From assembly GCA_015486845.1 (NCBI GenBank), contig WFQU01000103.1, positions 1 through 37,688 on the forward strand: a DNA stretch of 37,688 nt. The letters run 5' to 3'. The DNA comes from Anaerolineae bacterium. Its GTDB lineage: Bacteria > Chloroflexota > Anaerolineae > JAADDB01. Positions 1 through 37,688 of this stretch are shown here, in pieces (the first letter of the stretch is position 1; the number at the start of each line of letters is the position of its first letter). Made by a program: the position numbers and the translations under genes. Under the pieces are notes generated by a model that ran no database searches, was not told where the DNA came from, and saw nothing but the letters and a program-made list of their open reading frames with translations.

Positions 1-187
1 CCTCCACTCCGGTGCCGTGGCGAGGTACGTCAAGGTTGCGTCCGCTGCCAAGAGGCTGCTCAACACCAGCCCCCTTTCAGGGGGCTTCTTGGCGACGTAG
101 CACGGGGATTTGACCCCCGTGCGCTCGGGCGGAGAATGCTGTTGATTAGAAGTTCAACTTCTGCGAGAAGTTGAACTTCTTAAAGGG
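1..187 (+). repeat. Composite intergenic repeat, module B (3' part)
   Basis: The window opens inside a repeat that recurs near 10796-10985, 16705-16985 and 21345-21625. It contains three hairpins: AGCCCCC/GGGGGCT near 69-86, GCACGGGG (100-107) with CCCCGTGC (115-122), and a perfect 15-bp stem AGAAGTTCAACTTCT (148-162) with its complement (166-180) around a 3-nt loop. The block ends with a conserved TTAAAGGG. The left end is cut by the window edge. It is non-coding as far as I can see. Confidence 0.85.
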
Positions 188-1555: not shown

Positions 1556-4500
1556 TTATCGCTGTGCCGCTATGTTGAACATGAGTGTTCTGGCCAGTGC
1601 CGGCAACGTCGGCACGAGGTACAATTTGTCATGTTGAAAATCGGATGCCAACCCGAAAGGCAATGTAGCTGCCCGGCCAGGCAGCAAACGCACTGTTTTA
1701 CCATCTTTCGGGTCAATGACATAAACACCCGGTGCATCGGCCACGTACAAATAGCCACTGGTTGGATCGACCGCCAGCGCATAAGCCAAAGCAAAGGGAC
1801 GGTCTAACCGGCATTGGATTTTCCCTACCATGACGCCTCGCTCCGTATCGATCATCGCGATATTGTGCAAGCGCGGCGACAAAGTATAAAGCACATACAA
1901 ACGGTGTCTTTTCGTGTCCACAGCCATCCCCTGAGGAATGCCTAAGCCGGGCAGACGGGTCTTGAATCGCTGGCCGCCGGGCTTTACGGACATGGTCAAA
2001 ACACTACGTTCCCCCGGCAAAGAAACGAAAAGCTGATCACTTTGCGGTGGTGCCAGCACTACGTAAGGCGCGCTTCCTACCCGGTAACGATTAACTTCCC
2101 GTCCGCTGGCGGCGTCAAAAGCCACCACATCGCCACTGCCGGTAGCTGCCACGTACAATGTGTTGTTCCGCCAGGCCAGGCCGCTTGGCTGCCGGGCGCC
2201 GGAGAGGCGCCGAACTTTTAACCCGGTTTTATTGTAAACTGCCACCTGGTTGCCTTCCCAACTGGAAAGATAGAGCTTGCCGCCGGCAAACAGCATATCT
2301 TGCGGCGAAATACCGGGCAATGTCGATGATTGAATTGTTATGGCCTCTTTGTCACTGAATTTTGTGGCGCGTAACACGCCACGATCCGCAGTGTAAACAG
2401 TGCCGCTTTGCGGATCAATGGCTAACGCGGATAACCGGTCTGCCGGCGCGTTCTGCGTATGCAATGGCCACGCCGCCGCGCTGATCAGCGGCACATATAG
2501 TCGTGCAGTCGGCGTGATGGGTGTCCTCTGCGCGGGCAAAGGTGCCGTCGTCGTGGCTGCCAACGCCGTGGCCGGCACAGGGCCATCCTGGATTATCGTA
2601 ACTACGCCATGGGCACCATTGGTATAAAGAAGCTGGTGCGTTTCGTCGAGCAACAACTGATTGGCCGGGGCCCCGGCCAACGGCAGGGCCGGGAAGCGGT
2701 GACCGCCTAACGTCAACGGTAAAATCGTGTCCCGGTCGGCGCAAGCGATGAAGAGATGCGTCGTCATCTGGTTATAAGCTACTGCCTGGGGCACACAGCC
2801 AACGGCAATATCGTAACGCACACCGTTGAGCATATTCAACACTGTAATGGAGCGGTCCGTCTCATTAGCCGTAAGAAGTAAGTTTTCCCTGCCCGGCGGA
2901 AGCACCGCAATGGGGCCACGGCCCACTAACCATTTTGACTTCAACAAACCATCGGTGCGGTTTAGCAGCATGACCTGATTTTTGCCGTGGACAGCCACGT
3001 AAATTGTGTCGGCATCCAGCGCCACCCCGGCTGGCTGCCACGGAATTGACCATGATTCGCTCACGGTCAGCGCCGCGGTCAAACGCAAAAGTTGGTTCTG
3101 CCCCGGCAAAGTCAGATAAGCTTCATGCCCACTCGACTCCGCTACGCTGGCGAATACCTTGCTCGCCAGACGCTTCGTAATCCAGCGGGATGGTGTGGCC
3201 AAAGCGGTAGTATTCCAGACCTGGTTACCTTGCGTTACCCAGATCTGGCCGCTGGCAGCGCTATAATCCAGGCCGACCACCTGTGTCAACGTAACCGGTA
3301 GCGTTACCGCCCAGCGCGATTGGCCGGACAAAGCGTCGTATGTCACGATCCGATTGCCCTGGCTGACGCAAAGGGTTCCTCCATCCAGCGCTAAGCGCTG
3401 CCCAGGCGTGGTTAATTGCCAGTAAGCCAACACTTGTGGCGCACGCACCTGCGTAGGCGTAACAGGCTGGGGTGGTTGTGGCACCGGCGGTATCGTTGGT
3501 AGTGGCGTGTTAGTCGCTGTCACCATTGCGGTGGATGTGGCTGTATTGGTTGGAGCTCCGGTCGGCGTAGCCGTGTTGGCCGGCGTTGCCGTCCTTGTTG
3601 CGGTGGGCGTGGGTGTCTTGGTTGGTGAAGGCGTCTTGGTCGGCGTCGGCGAAGGCGTTCGGGTTGGCGTGGCGGTGCATGTGGCGGTAGGCGTGGGTGT
3701 AGGTGCGACGACATAAACACCGGCCACATTGTTCAGCGAAGGCAGCGTGCCGCCGTTATAGGTTCCCCCCGCGTTCAGGTAAAAATTGGAGGAATAATTG
3801 TGTACCGGCGTGCGCGCCTGGAAGCGCAATATCAGGGTGCCACTTCCTTCGCCCCACTTGCCCAATGGCTTGACATAATCGTATTCCGGGTGATGGCTGC
3901 CGTTGGGTGCCATCCAGTCCCAGGGCGTCCAATAGCCGTCCGGATCACTGAGTTCGTATGGTGCAACGACTTTTACTTCCGGCCAAATGCGCCAATAATC
4001 CCCTTCGAAAGCGCTTTTCATGTAATCGGCACGGTTCCACTCAAAAATGGACGGATAGCCTTGCCAGGTAAAATCGGCCTGGCCGATGGCATAGCCGGTT
4101 TCGCTGATGATGACTTTGACGCCGGTGCGGCCCCAGGCAGCTAATTGGGCCAATTCCAGCTGGTAACTGTCAATGGTGAGACGGTTGACATTGCCGGCGC
4201 TACCGTTGTGGATATTGTACTCCGGTGGATGATTGCCGGGGTAGGGATGCGTTGCCCAATAATCAAATTTCCATAAAATATCCGGCTTGGCCCGCAACAT
4301 GGCGTTGATGAAAGCGAGATTATCGTAATCGCCGCCGGGGCTCAGCGGTGCGTTGAGCACTTTGATGCGGGAATCCCCAATAGCGTGAATGGCGTCCGCC
4401 ACCGCGCTGAAGAATTCGGCGTACTCGGTGGGGTTGGCTTGATTGCTCCATTCCATGTTCAAATTGGGCTCATTGCCCACTTGGATGTATAGCGTGCGAC

Positions 4501-7816: not shown

Positions 7817-9763
7817 TCAGCCCGATTCCTGGGGTGGTGGCTGGGCTCCATTTTGGCCGACAGCAGAAGATTCCTGGGCCTCCATTTCCTGCAGAATGCG
7901 CGCCACTTCGGCAATGGCGATGCGTTGTTTGCGATATAAGTCCGACTCGCTCATAGCCAATTTTTGTGCTACCTCGTGCACCTTTTTCCCCTGGATGAAT
8001 TTAAGCTCCAGGATATTGTACAGAATCCATTCTGAAGTGGTCATGTGCCGTTGTCCTTCTGGTCGCAATTGTTCAATGGCTTGCAGCAATACCGATTGGA
8101 GAGCTCGGGTTGGATGTTTACCCCGAGCTATTTCCTCGTTCACAGAGCGCAATGTGAGCAACGGACTTTCGTGCAGTCGAGGCCCGCCCCACAAATGCGT
8201 CAGTGCCTGGTGCACCAATTTGATCATATCCTGTTGTCGCAATGAGGCCGGCATGACGCCAGAGCTGCCCGATTCCAAGACAAGCCGTTGGCTTAAGCCG
8301 TGAGTCTTCTGCAATTGGGCAATAGTCGGCATAATATCTTGCACGATGGCAAAAATACCCCACTGCAAATAACGATCCTGCACGGCCGCTTCCGCTTTCA
8401 TTAGCCACGGTTCTAAAGAATCATAGGCATCTTCAGCCAACGGCGGCGCCTCCGGCGGAACGGCGATGCCGAGTAACCCAATCACCAGTTTTCTTTCCGG
8501 CGCGAAAAGCGGCGCAATCCAAAAACCATCGAAACAGTGCAAACGGTGCGCTTTTGCTGGTTCATCTTTCTGCAGCGAAAATAACAACTGGGCTAAATTA
8601 TGACCTGTCAAGAAATGCAACGCCGGCGCTGCCGGACCATACGCCACTTCCAATTGCCATTCGTCATCGTTCATCGTGGCCACGAAACCGTGCATCGCGT
8701 GTAACTGGCTACAGATGAGCAACAGGATGTTATTCAAGAATTGCCGTAGGTCGCTGGTTGTCAAAAGCCGTTCGTTTAGCTCGGCCAACCAATCCAATTC
8801 CTGGCGATCATGCGTGTATATCAATCGATCCAGTACTGGTTCGATCCAGTGGATAGCAGCTTGCAGGGCAATGATCGCTGTGGCGATGGCAAAAATCCAA
8901 AGAAAATCTCGGGGCATGCCCATCACTTTGTCCAAGCGACTGATGATTAACGTGATTATAATGACCAACCCGGCTAAGGCCGGGCCGCGCAGCAAAAAAC
9001 GCAGCATATTGCGACGGATCATCCGGTCCGGCCACAAGCCGCCGTAATAGGCAACGACATAAGCCATCACTACGATCATAGTCGCCATGATCACCGAACC
9101 GACTAAGTTGACGCTTAAGACTAATTCAACGGTTTCGTGGTTGGTAGAGTTAGCAAATGCCAAATACGGGAAGACAGCCACACCAGGCGCAGCGAAAGAA
9201 AGGCCTAAATAAAGTGCTCTGCGCCGGGCTTCCGGCGTTAGTGCTTGCTGGTAGCCCCGGTAAGCCGTGTACATACCGTAACTCAAGGTGCCCACGTAAT
9301 AAACGACGAAGAAAGGGAAAAGCGGGCCGGCTTTCAACACATTCAACGGCGGTCGGTACGAAAGGCTGGTCACCAATAAATCGCTAAACAGCACCAGCGG
9401 CATCAAAAAAGTGCTCAAAAGATAGCTGCCAATAACGGCTGCCCGGCGCCGGGCAGATGGAAACTGTCCCCGGAAAAGGCCATCCGTGATGTGCAAATAG
9501 GCTGCAGGCACGAAAACAATGCCTAACCACTGTAGTTGCAACCAATGCCGGGCGCTAATTTCGGAAGTAGCGCGCGGCACAACGATGTCCCCGGCGTAAA
9601 CAACCATGACACAGCCCAATAGAATCGCAAAACTCAAGGAAATATCGTTGCGAACATTGGCCAATGTATAAACAATAAGCGAAAGAACCAAGATAACAAC
9701 GCTGGAGGATATCAGTAAATTGGCGAAAGAAAGCCAATCGAGCCACGACAAAGCGTACAGCAT
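7817..9763 (-). CDS. 7TM sensor protein with GAF-like region and C-terminal HTH-like output domain
   Basis: Residues 1-310 hold about eight hydrophobic segments like the N-terminal 7TM sensor module of some histidine kinases. A helical linker and GAF-like region follow (about 325-460; LDWLAELNERLLTTSDLRQF). No histidine-kinase H-box, ATPase N/G boxes or GGDEF motif is present. The end (about 505-625) has HLWGGPRLHESPLL, then WILYNILELKF and KVHEVAQKLAMSESDLYRKQR, which reads as a helix-turn-helix-like domain. To my knowledge this pairing is typical of Chloroflexota proteins of unknown mechanism. The ATG follows AGAAGGA by 6 nt. It is the first gene of a probable operon with the SLC13-like permease. 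Confidence 0.75.
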   Translation of the reverse strand: MLYALSWLDWLSFANLLISSSVVILVLSLIVYTLANVRNDISLSFAILLGCVMVVYAGDIVVPRATSEISARHWLQLQWLGIVFVPAAYLHITDGLFRGQFPSARRRAAVIGSYLLSTFLMPLVLFSDLLVTSLSYRPPLNVLKAGPLFPFFVVYYVGTLSYGMYTAYRGYQQALTPEARRRALYLGLSFAAPGVAVFPYLAFANSTNHETVELVLSVNLVGSVIMATMIVVMAYVVAYYGGLWPDRMIRRNMLRFLLRGPALAGLVIIITLIISRLDKVMGMPRDFLWIFAIATAIIALQAAIHWIEPVLDRLIYTHDRQELDWLAELNERLLTTSDLRQFLNNILLLICSQLHAMHGFVATMNDDEWQLEVAYGPAAPALHFLTGHNLAQLLFSLQKDEPAKAHRLHCFDGFWIAPLFAPERKLVIGLLGIAVPPEAPPLAEDAYDSLEPWLMKAEAAVQDRYLQWGIFAIVQDIMPTIAQLQKTHGLSQRLVLESGSSGVMPASLRQQDMIKLVHQALTHLWGGPRLHESPLLTLRSVNEEIARGKHPTRALQSVLLQAIEQLRPEGQRHMTTSEWILYNILELKFIQGKKVHEVAQKLAMSESDLYRKQRIAIAEVARILQEMEAQESSAVGQNGAQPPPQESG

Positions 9764-9775
9764 AGTTAGTCCTTC

Positions 9776-9919
9776 TATAACGATTCAGCCCAACGACTAT
9801 AAGTCACGGCAACATCCGCAAAAGTGCCCCACGGTGACTGGCAGGCAACCTGCGCAGGCAGGTTTCGCAACTGTGGCAGCGATTTCCAATCGCCGGACGA
9901 GGTAGGCTGAATCGTTATA
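9776..9919. mobile_element. Non-autonomous TIR-flanked element (MITE-like) carrying module A
   Basis: A 144-bp segment is bounded by perfect 15-bp inverted repeats, TATAACGATTCAGCC (9776-9790) and GGCTGAATCGTTATA (9905-9919). If the outer TATA is a target duplication, the TIR proper is ACGATTCAGCC. The interior is module A of the repeat family (also at 25003-25110 and 37407-37470), with hairpins including GCGATT/AATCGC. It encodes no protein and fits the gap between the sensor gene RBS and the GNAT stop codon, about 10 nt from each. The copies at 25 kb and 37 kb lack these TIRs. Confidence 0.55.
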
Positions 9920-9928
9920 TCCCTCTCT

Positions 9929-10471
9929 TTACCGCAGCAGCGCTGTAAGAAAGATGGCAATATCTCCATTGCTGAAGTGGTCATCGTGGTACCCACTCAT
10001 GTAAAAGTTATACTTCTGCAAGAAACGAATCAGCGGATAGGCTTTCGTTGGCACCGCCGCAAAAATACGCGTCACGTCCTGCTCTTTGGCCCAGCCGACA
10101 CCCCGCTTTAACAATTGAGCGCCAATTCCCTGGCGTCGCCATTCCGGTGCCACGACGATGTGGTGCAACCAGGCAAAGGATTCCCACGGTTTCGTGGCTA
10201 AATCAATGAAACCTACCACTTGTTTCTCGTCCGAGCTCAAAGCGGCCAAAACGCATTGTCGTTCCCGGTAATGATGGAAAACGGTGTCTTCAATATCCGG
10301 ACAATGCATCCGAACCGGTCGAGGCAAACGAGCACGCCGAAACGTCACCGAGAAGTTATCCTCTGTTTGCTGAGGCTCCATTTGCCAAACATATTGCGTC
10401 TCGAAACGGCTATCAAGATGAAAACAAGCATTTAGCTCTTGCAAATCAGGTCGTCGTATGCGCACATACAT
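9929..10471 (-). CDS. GNAT family N-acetyltransferase
   Basis: This is an acetyl-CoA-dependent acyltransferase of about 180 residues. The GNAT core is clear: a beta strand, AWLHHIVVAPEWRRQGIGAQLLKRGVGWAKE (motif A, with the Q/RxxGxG/A pyrophosphate loop RRQGIGAQ), then YPLIRFLQKYNFYMSGY (motif B). The N-terminal part includes RIRRPDLQELNACF, as in a family of Chloroflexota GNATs with long N-termini. I start at the ATG at 10471. A TTG at 10537 would add 22 residues, and AAGGA lies about 17 nt upstream of the ATG, so the start is not certain. A TAAAAT -10-like box lies just upstream. The substrate (small molecule or protein N-terminus) is unknown. Confidence 0.83.
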   Translation of the reverse strand: MYVRIRRPDLQELNACFHLDSRFETQYVWQMEPQQTEDNFSVTFRRARLPRPVRMHCPDIEDTVFHHYRERQCVLAALSSDEKQVVGFIDLATKPWESFAWLHHIVVAPEWRRQGIGAQLLKRGVGWAKEQDVTRIFAAVPTKAYPLIRFLQKYNFYMSGYHDDHFSNGDIAIFLTALLR

Positions 10472-10626
10472 AGTATTTAATCGCCGTTTCCTTTCCGCAA
10501 AGTGAGCATCTGTTTCTGCCCCTTGTGTATCACGCAAGCTATTTTATCACGAATTGGCGTCAGGGGAAAGGTCGTCGCAAGCTATGTGTAGCCTGCGTGC
10601 ATTTTAGCCCGGCTGTTACAGCAATT

Positions 10627-10727: not shown

Positions 10728-10985
10728 ACCGGCGTCGAGGCTTTAGCCGGTGGTAGACCCACTCACCCACCTAAAGGCTTGACGCCAGCCACCCCCATGC
10801 CCGGGGCTGAAAGCCGCCGGGCTACGTCAAGTTCAAGCCCGCTTTAGCGGGCTGTCTCGCCACAGCCCCCTTCAGGGGGCTTTTTGGCCACGTAGCACGG
10901 GGATTTGACCCCCGTGCGCTCGGGCGGAGAACGCCGGCGAATAGAAGTTCAACTTCTTCGAGAAGTTGAACTTCTTAAAGGGAGC
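10728..10985 (+). repeat. Intergenic repeat, module B variant with inverted 5' segment
   Basis: Positions 10728-10785 are the reverse complement of the module B palindromic segment seen directly at 37608-37660 (GGTGG/CCACC stem, GGCTAAAGCCTC). From about 10796 the module B 3' part runs in direct orientation: an added hairpin AGCCCGC/GCGGGCT, then AGCCCCCT (10864-10871) with AGGGGGCT (10874-10881) and TTTTT, then GCACGGGG/CCCCGTGC, then the 15-bp stem AGAAGTTCAACTTCT (10943-10957) with 10961-10975 and loop TCG. The mixed orientation shows the modules can be reshuffled. The gap from 10472 to 11496 contains no convincing gene. Confidence 0.8.
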
Positions 10986-16514: not shown

Positions 16515-16699
16515 ACAAAATGCCCCTTCCTCCTGACTGAGACACACCTCACATTAGATTCGTTTTCAGTATAAATGAATCCGCACCGCTTTGCCGTCCC
16601 ATTTTAGTACTATGATTTTCCAACGACAGGTAGCAGCATTTGCATCAAGGACTCCTAAACTAAATACCTGACCTCAAGAGCCATGCACTGCGCAGATAG

Positions 16700-17005
16700 G
16701 AGTCGGCATGGGCCTGCGGCGCGCCACAGCGGATGAAAACCTACGGCTGGACCCGAGCCTTTAGGCGGCTTTGTAGCATTCCCCCCGGCTAAAGCCTCTA
16801 CTCCGGCGCCGTGGCGGGGTACGTCAAGGTTGCATCCGCTGCCAAGAGGCTGCTCAACACCAGCCCCCTTTCAGGGGGCTTCTTGGCGACGTAGCACGGG
16901 GATTTGACCCCCGTGCGCTCGGGCGGAGAACGCTGTCGATTAGAAGTTCAACTTCTGCGAGAAGTTGAACTTCTTAAAGGGGGCCTGATTTTTTAGACGC
17001 TCTGC
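16700..17005 (+). repeat. Composite repeat module B, near-complete copy
   Basis: The copy begins near GGAGTCGGCATGGGCCTGCG and runs through the partially paired GAGCCTTTAGGC...GGCTAAAGCCTC segment. It continues with AGCCCCC/GGGGGCT, GCACGGGG/CCCCGTGC and the 15-bp stem AGAAGTTCAACTTCT (16942-16956) with 16960-16974, ending in TTAAAGGG. An 18-codon ORF starts at 16708. Together with the following partial copies it fills most of the gap between the response regulator and the next gene. Confidence 0.85.
16708..16764 (+). other. Repeat-embedded micro-ORF, copy 1 (18 codons)
   Basis: ATG to TAG encodes MGLRRATADENLRLDPSL. GGAG lies 5 nt before the ATG. The same length, stop and spacing recur at 17048 and 37569. 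It may be a real small peptide or a by-product of the repeat sequence. Confidence 0.25.
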
Positions 17006-17031
17006 GCCTTTACGCCGCCGCGTCAACTGAT

Positions 17032-17260
17032 TTTCAGGGGAGTTATCATGAGCCTATGGCACACCACAGCGAATGAAAATTTACGACTGGCGTCGAGCCT
17101 TTAGGCGGCTTTGTAGCGTTACCCCCGGCTAAAGCCTCTACTCCGGCGCAATGGGAGCTATTTTCAGGGGAGAATCTGTTACTAATTTCTTGACCATTGT
17201 TTTTTATCTGCGTGCGCAGCCTGCGTTAATCTGCGTCCCATTTTATTTTCAGAGGGCACA
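17032..17260 (+). repeat. Second partial module B copy followed by module D
   Basis: TTTTCAGGGGAGTTATCATG starts a 5' module B fragment (to about 17155, CTACTCCGGCGC) that lacks the three downstream hairpins. After TATTTTCAGGGGAG, module D follows (17193-17255: ATCTGCGTGCGCAGCCTGCG, then TTAATCTGCGTCCC and ATTTTATTTTCAGAGG). The joining phrase TATTTTCAnnGGAG recurs at several module boundaries. Confidence 0.75.
17048..17104 (+). other. Repeat-embedded micro-ORF, copy 2 (18 codons)
   Basis: It encodes MSLWHTTANENLRLASSL, with GGGGAG 5 nt upstream of the ATG. Compared with the copy at 37569 it has synonymous changes (CTA/TTA, CGG/CGA, TCG/TCA) and two replacements (R4W, D9N). Confidence 0.25.
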
Positions 17261-21320: not shown

Positions 21321-21344
21321 GTGCGCCCCGTTACAAATCACCAA

Positions 21345-21690
21345 GTCGGCATGGGCCTGCGGCGTACCACAGCGGCTGAAAATGATGCGGCTGGCATCGA
21401 GCCTTTAGGCAGGTTGGTGGGTCTACCAACGGCTAAAGCCTCGATTCCGGATGCGCCGGCGGGGTGCGTCAAGGTAACGTCCGCTGCCAAGAGGCTATTC
21501 AACACCAGCCCCTTTCTAAGGGGCTTATCATTTACGTAGCACGGAGCTTTGAGCTCCGTGCGCTCGGGCGGAGAACGCCGTCGAATAGAAGTTCAACTTC
21601 TTGAAGAAGTTGAACTTCTTAAATGTGTTTGAGATCAGCGTGTGTCAGCGCGCATCAGCGTTGATCTGCGTCCTATTTTATTTTCAAGGG
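21345..21690 (+). repeat. Composite repeat module B (divergent copy) joined to module D
   Basis: This copy runs from GGCATGGGCCTGCGGCG to TTAAATG (module B, to about 21625), then module D (21640-21675, ending CTGCGTCC) and the joint TATTTTATTTTCAAGGGAGG. Stems differ from the other copies but keep pairing: AGCCCCTT/AAGGGGCT near 21507-21525 and GCACGGAGC (21539-21547) with GCTCCGTGC (21553-21561). The 15-bp stem is at 21587-21601 and 21605-21619 with loop TGA. A one-base insertion near 21385 breaks the micro-ORF. The final AAGGGAGG is the RBS of the next gene. The 380-nt gap holds no other gene. Confidence 0.85.
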
Positions 21691-24292: not shown

Positions 24293-25002
24293 CGATTAAT
24301 AAGTCCGGATTAACGTGAAAACACACGCCAATTGGAGGAAATCGCTCACCAAAAAGAGAGCCATACTATAGAAACCAATGCTCCTTGCGATGATACACCC
24401 AAATTTTGATGCTTTGGGCTTTAGTGTCTCTGCGTCAACCACCACAGTAACCATTTTTCTTTACATAGAAGCCAATAATCGGTAAAATGCGCTATGCGTC
24501 GCCGTGAACACGCCAAATAAGTAAGAGGCAGCATTGTATATAAAAGGGGGCTATAGAAGGTATCCGGCATAGCACAGGGAATGAAGATGCGCCGGATCTG
24601 GTTCGTTGCGGGCAGTACACGCTCTCGCCGCACTGCTGTCCGCCGCCATCCTGTCGGCAACCAGTTCTGACATATCGTTGGCGGCTCGAGTTCGGACCAG
24701 TTTGATGTTATTCACTAGTGTGAACCAGGCTCGAGAACAGAAATTATTCGCATTACCGGTGCGACTGGCTTGCCTAAGCAGCAACCAATAACCTATTTAA
24801 TTCGTTTTACCACCTTAGCTGGGGGAACGCTTTTCGGAAAGGTTGGAGGGGAACCGTAGGGGTTCCCCCGCCAGGAGCTCGAGGGCAGCGCCCTCGGAAG
24901 AGAAAAAGGAGGCGATATTATCTTTCGACCAGACCTCGCCTTAGGAAAAGTAATGCTACAGCGATAGGCATGGCGTTTGTTGATGACGGCTGATGGGGCC
25001 CA
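24293..25002. other. Gene-free stretch with scattered decayed-looking frames
   Basis: I see no convincing gene. Open frames of about 60-80 codons on both strands (24421-24791) lack family resemblance and RBSs. One + strand frame near 24742 reads IIRITGATGLP, which recalls a Rossmann start, but it soon reaches a stop. The stretch may be a decayed gene. Two hairpins near 24848-24896 belong to the repeats. Confidence 0.4.
24848..24896 (+). repeat. Twin hairpins, module E
   Basis: GGGGAACC (24848-24855) pairs with GGTTCCCC (24861-24868), and CGAGGGC (24880-24886) pairs with GCCCTCG (24890-24896). The second hairpin recurs as CCGAGGGC/GCCCTCGG at 37513-37531, so it is part of the repeat family. 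Confidence 0.6.
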
Positions 25003-25160
25003 GTGACTAAAAGTCACGGCAACATCTGCAAAATCGCCCTACGGCGATTAGCATGCAACCTGCGCAGGCAGGTTTCGCAGTTGTAGTAGCGATTTCTAAT
25101 CGCCGGGCGTGCGCAGCCTGCGTTGACCTGCGTCCCATTTTTATTTTCAGAGGAGCCATT
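25003..25160 (+). repeat. Composite repeat module A joined to module D
   Basis: This copy contains GTGACT/AGTCAC, AATCGCC/GGCGATT, AACCTGC/GCAGGTT and GCGATT/AATCGC hairpins, then module D (GTGCGCAGCCTGCG, CTGCGTCCC) and TTTTTATTTTCAGAGGAG. It matches 9791-9900 and 37407-37470 with substitutions. It sits upstream of the DedA gene, with its final GAGGAG about 50 nt before that start. Confidence 0.8.
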
Positions 25161-31843: not shown

Positions 31844-31912
31844 TTTCTATTCTTAGTTCACCTTCATTTTTTTAGCGTAACCGCAGCTACTCAGCAAAGT
31901 TCAGCAATTAAT

Positions 31913-31936
31913 AATCGCTGCCACAGTTGCGAAACC
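31913..31936 (-). repeat. Module A fragment (24 nt), inverted
   Basis: The minus strand matches the module A stretch at about 9862-9886 (GGTTTCGCAACTGTGG and the following GCAGCGATT) over 24 nt. It lies in the 5' leader of the radical SAM gene, between the -10 box at 31948 and the start codon. Confidence 0.6.
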
Positions 31937-31947
31937 GGCCGGCGCGG

Positions 31948-31953
31948 ATTATA
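31948..31953 (-). promoter_or_regulatory. -10 box for the radical SAM/moaD-like operon
   Basis: TATAAT on the minus strand within TATATAAT. No good -35 or TGn motif is seen. The intergenic region is divergent (radical SAM gene on the minus strand, recD2 on the plus strand), so the 325-nt gap probably holds both promoters. Confidence 0.35.
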
Positions 31954-32168
31954 TACTCATCGCTGCAAGCCGATTTTACAGACGTTGTCGCAACTTCCAG
32001 TCACTGGATTGCGTAGCTACCCTTTTGCACTGCTTAAGATAACATAATCCGAGAAAATGGCCAAACATAGTGCCTTGTTTAGCGTCTGGTGATCTTCCTC
32101 CGGCCATGAACAAAATGAACTGGCAACAGCGCACCGGCTGTGCTAAGATAAGGCTTGGAGAAATGAAG

Positions 32169-37404: not shown

Positions 37405-37688
37405 GCCCAGCGACTAAAAGTCACGGCAACATCTGCAAAATCGCCCTACGGCGATTAGCTTGCAACCTGCGCAGGCGTTGATCGGCGTTCTATTTCTCGG
37501 AGGAGAGGGTAGCCGAGGGCAATGCCCTCGGCCACCCCCCAGAGAAGTTTATTTTCAAGGGAGTTATCATGAGCCTACGGCACACCACAGCGGATGAAAA
37601 TCTACGGCTGGCGTCAAGCCTTTAGGTGGGTTGGTGGGTCTACCACCGGCTAAAGCCTCGATTCCGGTACGGCGGCAGGGTACGTCAA
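37405..37688 (+). repeat. Composite repeat A-D-E-B, cut by the window end
   Basis: Module A (GACTAAAAGTC, AATCGCC/GGCGATT, to about 37470), a short module D part (GCGTTGATCGGCGTTC), module E (CCGAGGGC 37513-37520 with GCCCTCGG 37524-37531), then TTTATTTTCAAGGGAG and the start of module B with GGTGG/CCACC. The rest of module B lies beyond the window. No gene follows the DtxR-like stop codon apart from the micro-ORF. Confidence 0.85.
37569..37625 (+). other. Repeat-embedded micro-ORF, copy 3 (18 codons)
   Basis: ATG to TAG encodes MSLRHTTADENLRLASSL, with GGGAG 5 nt upstream. It matches copy 2 at 17048 apart from two residues and three synonymous changes. Confidence 0.25.

What the first reader, a model, noticed from the sequence alone, without database searches (positions are those of the whole stretch)
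9776..9919. 144-bp element with perfect 15-bp inverted ends and possible TATA duplication
TATAACGATTCAGCC and GGCTGAATCGTTATA bound the segment. Its interior is repeat module A, which elsewhere in the window lacks these ends. It fits between two genes with about 10 nt on each side. It may be a MITE-like vehicle that spread module A, or a TIR pair acquired secondarily.
Basis: seen in the sequence. Interest (0 to 1): 0.5.

Follow-up and report, generated by a model that had tools for sequence, protein, structure and literature searches.

The report
IS66-type MITE between two genes
This is a small, gene-less hopping DNA element (a MITE) that was most likely moved by the enzyme of a common insertion-sequence family called IS66; it landed between two bacterial genes and belongs to a group of such elements scattered through this bacterium and many of its relatives.

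Summary
TATAACGATTCAGCC (9776-9790) and GGCTGAATCGTTATA (9905-9919) form the only perfect 15-bp inverted repeat with a 50-200 nt loop in the window, and none arose in 60 shuffles. The element proper is 142 bp (9777-9918). It is flanked by a decayed 8-bp target duplication, GTCCTTCT/ATCCCTCT (6/8), not a TATA duplication.

Of 12 module-A elements with both ends placed, 9 have 8-bp flanks matching at 6/8 or better, against 1 of 132 cross-pairings. The same TIR, GTAACTACTCAGCC, occurs in 73 of 396 genomes of the class. Of 16 short TIR pairs, 9 have perfect 8-bp duplications. IS66 transposases lie in 1.5-1.6 kb elements with nearly the same TIR and perfect 8-bp duplications. Published ISDge4 (IS66 family, ISBst12 group) has matching ends and an 8-bp repeat.

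In five of five relatives the same gene junction is short and lacks the element.

So it is an IS66/ISBst12-type MITE: a new member of a known kind. Most of the 155 module-A copies examined in this genome lack one or both TIRs, so TIR transposition explains only part of module A's spread.

The parts
9777..9918 (.). The element: 142-bp IS66-type MITE with module A as interior
   Evidence: TIRs exact; same length and ends in copies L011, L045 and others
9777..9790 (+). Left 14-bp TIR ATAACGATTCAGCC (11 of 14 to GTAACTACTCAGCC)
9905..9918 (-). Right 14-bp TIR, reverse complement of the left, with the same three departures from the consensus
9769..9776 (+). Left copy of the decayed 8-bp target duplication, GTCCTTCT; on the minus strand it reads AGAAGGAC and is the likely ribosome-binding site of the gene 7817-9763
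   Evidence: 6 of 8 match to 9919-9926; position relative to the start codon; ribosome-binding role is inferred
9919..9926 (+). Right copy of the decayed 8-bp target duplication, ATCCCTCT
9791..9904 (+). Interior, repeat module A; no gene called in it
   Evidence: no Rfam family
9929..10537 (-). Upstream flanking gene, GNAT acetyltransferase
   Evidence: PF00583, E 8.9e-16
7817..9763 (-). Downstream flanking gene, 648 aa, weak HisKA_7TM match (26.9 bits, below the 28.6 cut-off)
   Evidence: same gene order in five of five relatives
31901..32007 (-). Another module-A copy in the window, with decayed TIRs just outside and no clear duplication
24998..25108 (+). Module-A copy in a composite repeat, without the TIR pair
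37405..37476 (+). Truncated module-A copy, without the TIR pair

Best explanation
The segment is a non-autonomous transposable element (MITE) of the IS66 family, ISBst12 group. An IS66 transposase encoded elsewhere recognised the GTAACTACTCAGCC-type ends and inserted the 142-bp element into the short gap between a GNAT gene and the gene after it, duplicating 8 bp. The downstream copy of that duplication kept the likely ribosome-binding site next to the start codon. The copy is old: its duplication has two mismatches, and no IS66 transposase was found in this assembly. Shown: the ends, 8-bp duplications in related copies, empty sites in relatives, and autonomous IS66 elements in the class with near-identical ends and 8-bp duplications. 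Inferred: that an IS66 transposase moved this particular copy, that it inserted here rather than being lost from five relatives, and that the gene pair still works.
For: Perfect TIRs beyond chance. Module-A elements with both ends placed: 9 of 12 have 8-bp flanks at 6/8 or better against 1 of 132 cross-pairings. TIR in 73 of 396 class genomes, reversed control at most 1 per strand. 9 of 16 short TIR pairs have perfect 8-bp duplications, 0 of 16 at any other length from 2 to 12, 0 of 238 cross-pairings at 7/8 or better. IS66 elements with ends GTAACTACTAAGCC: six loci with 8/8 and one with 7/8 duplications, transposase confirmed by PF03050 and zf-IS66. IS66 remnant with a one-mismatch end in G003, same family as the window. 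Junction empty in five of five relatives. ISDge4 ends and 8-bp repeat, PMC12898284 passages.
Against: The window copy's own duplication is only 6/8. No IS66 transposase in the own genome. No relative closer than genus level was available: the genus holds only the own genome, so the empty sites are in diverged relatives (35-64% identity for the GNAT protein). 3 of the 12 module-A elements show no duplication. Of 30 IS66 loci, 8 have no such end within 3 mismatches and 4 of the 11 paired ones have weaker ends or no duplication.
Confidence: 0.93

Rival explanations
1. Module A is an older repeat that acquired a TIR pair secondarily at this site; the other copies never had ends.
For: Only 3 of 155 own-genome copies examined have both TIRs in good form, and end-lacking copies are the more uniform class (mean identity 0.900 against 0.845 among three TIR copies).
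Against: Two-ended module-A elements with 8-bp duplications occur in a second genus, G003 (L042, L044, L045), and at other places in the own genome (L003, L011, L259, L266). 29 of 155 copies keep a good left TIR without the right one, as expected from loss.
Confidence: 0.04
2. The hairpin is a functional RNA or attenuator between two co-transcribed genes, and the symmetry is kept for folding rather than for transposition.
For: Strong folding on both strands (z -3.8 and -5.3). The two arms carry the same three departures from the consensus. It lies between co-directional genes.
Against: No Rfam family at gathering score. No promoter- or terminator-like site in 9650-10050. Absent from the same junction in five of five relatives. 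RNAalifold on 28 copies gave a covariation term of 0.2 and 1 of 31 pairs with a double change, though few of those rows have both TIRs. Matching changes in both arms are also expected from transposase recognition.
Confidence: 0.03

Closest known systems
IS66 family, ISBst12 group (e.g. ISDge4 of Deinococcus geothermalis, PMC12898284, passages read)
   Same: Ends GTGACTACTCAGCA / GTAACTGCTCAGCA against GTAACTACTCAGCC here; 8-bp duplication.
   Different: ISDge4 is autonomous, with a 449-aa transposase; the window element is 142 bp and has no transposase gene.
IS66 elements found here in the same class (L140, L143, L152, L153, L159, L162, L166)
   Same: Ends GTAACTACTAAGCC, one base from the MITE consensus; 8-bp duplications.
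   Different: 1539-1569 bp with a transposase; interior unrelated to module A.
MITEs of other IS families, e.g. MITEPye1 (TIRs like an IS1182-family element, PMC11578231, passages read)
   Same: Small, TIRs, direct repeats, no transposase, intergenic, folds well.
   Different: Other IS family. MITEPye1 is reported at 1-3 copies per chromosome; module A has more than 150 places here.
REP-type intergenic palindromes (PMC3733652, seen only in the search listing)
   Same: Numerous intergenic palindromic repeats.
   Different: Here there are transposon ends with 8-bp duplications and a matching DDE transposase. REP-specific features were not tested.

Membership tests
MITE of the IS66 family (ISBst12 group) | Terminal inverted repeats matching the family's ends | tested here: met
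   Window TIR 11 of 14 to GTAACTACTCAGCC; IS66 loci in the class have GTAACTACTAAGCC; ISDge4 ends
MITE of the IS66 family (ISBst12 group) | 8-bp target duplication | tested here: met
   Window copy 6/8; 9 of 12 module-A elements at 6/8 or better against 1 of 132 cross-pairings; for the window copy taken alone the evidence is moderate
MITE of the IS66 family (ISBst12 group) | Short and without a transposase gene | tested here: met
   142 bp; no ORF of 80 aa or more lies within it
MITE of the IS66 family (ISBst12 group) | Several two-ended copies at unrelated sites | tested here: met
   L001, L003, L011, L259, L266 in the own genome; L042, L044, L045 in G003
MITE of the IS66 family (ISBst12 group) | Autonomous partner in the same genome | tested here: not met
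   0 PF03050 matches in the own genome; the assembly is in 182 contigs and multi-copy elements may be missing. Partners exist in the class and a remnant in the same family. A MITE can outlive its partner, so this is not taken as a defining failure
MITE of the IS66 family (ISBst12 group) | Observed movement by the transposase | not testable with these tools
   Needs a transposition assay
Known RNA family (Rfam 15) | Match at the gathering score | tested here: not met
   0 matches in the whole window

The most novel reading that the evidence does not exclude
In this genus an IS66 MITE stopped depending on its ends. Its interior (module A) became part of composite intergenic repeats, together with pieces that resemble a second IS66 MITE family, and these composites multiplied to well over a hundred copies by a route that does not use the TIRs (recombination between repeats, or another end-recognising enzyme).
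Probability: 0.3. Interest if true: 0.5.

Novelty: new member of a known kind. Interest (0 to 1): 0.35.

Why it matters
It gives a concrete identity (IS66/ISBst12-type ends, 8-bp duplication) to one abundant intergenic repeat of this lineage, and shows that short elements with the same ends and different interiors are widespread in the class. That helps annotation and raises the question of how an IS family with few intact copies can seed very many small repeats. The basic mechanism is known.

Tried and rejected
TATA or TA duplication (IS630/mariner-like): rejected. In the TIR pairs tested, perfect flanking repeats occur at 8 bp only (9 of 16) and in 0 of 16 at every other length from 2 to 12.

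IS66 in the own genome: 0 matches. I then looked in 25 other genomes.

Age order of TIR-bearing against end-lacking copies from core identity: inconclusive. A first run included a badly cut L259 core that distorted the averages; I dropped that row and repeated the comparison.

Genus-level and order-level searches added nothing: the genus holds only the own genome and the order the same six genomes as the family. The genome-contig scan with the 648-aa protein found no relative. The second scan, with a TIR plus module-A pattern, gave one hit, WFQT01000217.1, Anaerolineae bacterium isolate S014_12, whose printed stretch reads the same as L040 of G003; that the window's genome is of the Anaerolineae is inferred from this.

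Rfam: nothing at gathering score. Promoter and terminator scan: nothing.

Papers: searches listed no paper whose title or abstract start describes an IS66-type MITE. I read only passages of PMC3189936, PMC9769881, PMC12898284, PMC11946415, PMC11578231, PMC6053426 and PMC8024623. The library is partial, so absence from print is not established.

Full report
Observation. The two 15-mers lie at 9776-9790 and 9905-9919 and are exact reverse complements. In the whole window this is the only perfect 15-bp inverted repeat with a loop of 50-200 nt; none appeared in 60 dinucleotide shuffles. The interior matches a repeat found many times in the same genome: 44 matches by nucleotide search (40 of 226 first-look candidates scored) and 151 by a profile (150 of 2071 candidates scored), so both counts are lower bounds.

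Ends and target duplication. I fetched further copies from the own genome, G000, and from G003, another genus of the same family. Copies that keep both ends have the consensus GTAACTACTCAGCC ... GGCTGAGTAGTTAC and are 142 bp long in the commonest form. Directly outside are 8-bp direct repeats. For the twelve module-A elements with both ends placed the matches are: L001 (the window copy) 6/8, L003 7, L011 8, L042 7, L045 7, L044 8, L046 1, L259 6, L266 7, L036 3, L038 6, L040 3. That is 9 of 12 at 6/8 or better, against 1 of 132 cross-pairings. The ends were set by hand; for L044, whose right arm is damaged, I knew the repeat when placing the end, and L003 has an extra base in its left arm. L036, L038 and L040 are longer forms of 204-205 bp. 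In the window the element is therefore 9777-9918 with duplications 9769-9776 and 9919-9926. The 'TATA' belongs to the TIR plus one neighbouring base.

A class-wide family of ends. The exact 14-mer GTAACTACTCAGCC occurs in 73 of 396 genomes of the class (57 of 222 genera), up to 94+94 times in one genome, while the reversed control never exceeds 1 per strand in the table. In the 30 loci fetched from that search, 16 TIR pairs up to 400 bp apart were found. Nine have perfect 8-bp duplications, none has a perfect duplication at any other length from 2 to 12, and 0 of 238 cross-pairings reach 7/8. The sequences next to the ends differ from locus to locus.

The enzyme. PF03050 (IS66 transposase) matched in 13 of 25 genomes searched. 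Of the 30 IS66 loci fetched, 11 have TIR-like pairs 1.47-1.57 kb apart. Six of those have perfect 8-bp duplications (L140, L152, L153, L159, L162, L166) and L143 has 7/8; all seven have ends GTAACTACTAAGCC, one base from the MITE consensus. The other four pairs (L141, L142, L145, L158) have weaker ends or no duplication, and 8 of the 30 loci show no such end within 3 mismatches. The transposase in L153 (496 aa) matches PF03050, zf-IS66 and DUF6444. In G225 the exact 14-mer lies about 113 bp outside the transposase match at two places by coordinates (C8 and C31), and it is seen in L148, L160 and L164. G003 has a broken IS66 piece with a one-mismatch end about 132 bp outside it. The own genome has no match. 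A published element, ISDge4, assigned to the ISBst12 group of IS66, has ends GTGACTACTCAGCA and GTAACTGCTCAGCA and made an 8-bp repeat (PMC12898284, passages). Another paper gives 8-bp repeats and GTAAGCG-starting ends for IS66 in general (PMC11946415, passages); the match here is to the ISBst12-type ends rather than to GTAAGCG.

Empty site. The GNAT gene (PF00583) is followed directly by the 648-aa gene in five of five relatives. The gap there is at most 49 nt by any candidate start, and 14 nt to the first aligned residue in G003, the closest, against 165 nt in the window. No module A is found in those five loci at E 10. Taking out the element and one duplication copy leaves 15 nt in the window. 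The duplication copy next to the start codon reads AGAAGGAC, a likely ribosome-binding site, so the insertion probably spared translation of the downstream gene (inference). No promoter- or terminator-like site was found in the junction.

How far this explains the spread of module A. Among 155 distinct module-A copies in the fetched own-genome stretches, 29 keep a good left end (12 or more of 14) and 5 a right end scoring 11 or more. Three (L001, L003, L011) have both, plus the decayed copy at 31.9 kb in the window. Two more two-ended copies, L259 and L266, came from the TIR pattern search. Many copies sit in composites: 18 of 155 have GGGGTAAC just before the core, 28 a CTGATG or CAGATG junction, and 46 a GCGTTRATC-type piece just after. 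Core identity does not order the two classes in time: TIR copies to G003 0.859, others to G003 0.854, three TIR copies among themselves 0.845, 121 others among themselves 0.900. My reading is that a MITE lineage entered the family, that old two-ended insertions persist, and that an end-lacking form multiplied in this genus by another route. That last step is not shown.

A second family. The TIR pattern in the own genome and G003 also found two-ended elements with a different interior (for example L257 8/8, L269 8/8, L262 7/8, L271 7/8, L277 7/8), whose sequence resembles the piece found next to module A in the composites. That resemblance was judged by eye.

Verdict. An IS66/ISBst12-type MITE, old, and probably immobile in this genome unless a transposase is missing from the assembly. 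A new member of a known kind.

Noticed in passing
L257, L269, L271, L277 (G003) and L262, L270, L284 (own genome): A second group of short two-ended elements with the same TIRs, an interior with ..GGACGC.. / ..TGCGTTCTATTT.. motifs, and 8-bp duplications of 6/8 to 8/8.
   Followed up: partly
Own genome, e.g. window 16699-17250, 21344-21684, 24998-25146 and 37405-37688: Intergenic regions are built from several repeat modules in varying combinations; module A is one of them.
   Followed up: partly
L009, L010, L027 (own genome contig C149, 7728-8113): Three full module-A copies and part of a fourth in tandem, period 114 bp.
   Followed up: no
L036, L038, L040 (G003) and L255 (WFQT01000217.1): A longer form of the element, 204-205 bp, with an extra stretch of about 60 bp at the right end; L042 looks like a deletion form of it.
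   Followed up: partly
window 148-180, 10943-10975, 16942-16974, 21587-21619: Near-palindromic AGAAGTTCAACTTCT..AGAAGTTGAACTTCT units; the same motif precedes some module-A copies.
   Followed up: no
window 3561-3700: Degenerate direct repeats with 18/24-nt spacing inside the 1217-aa minus-strand ORF.
   Followed up: no
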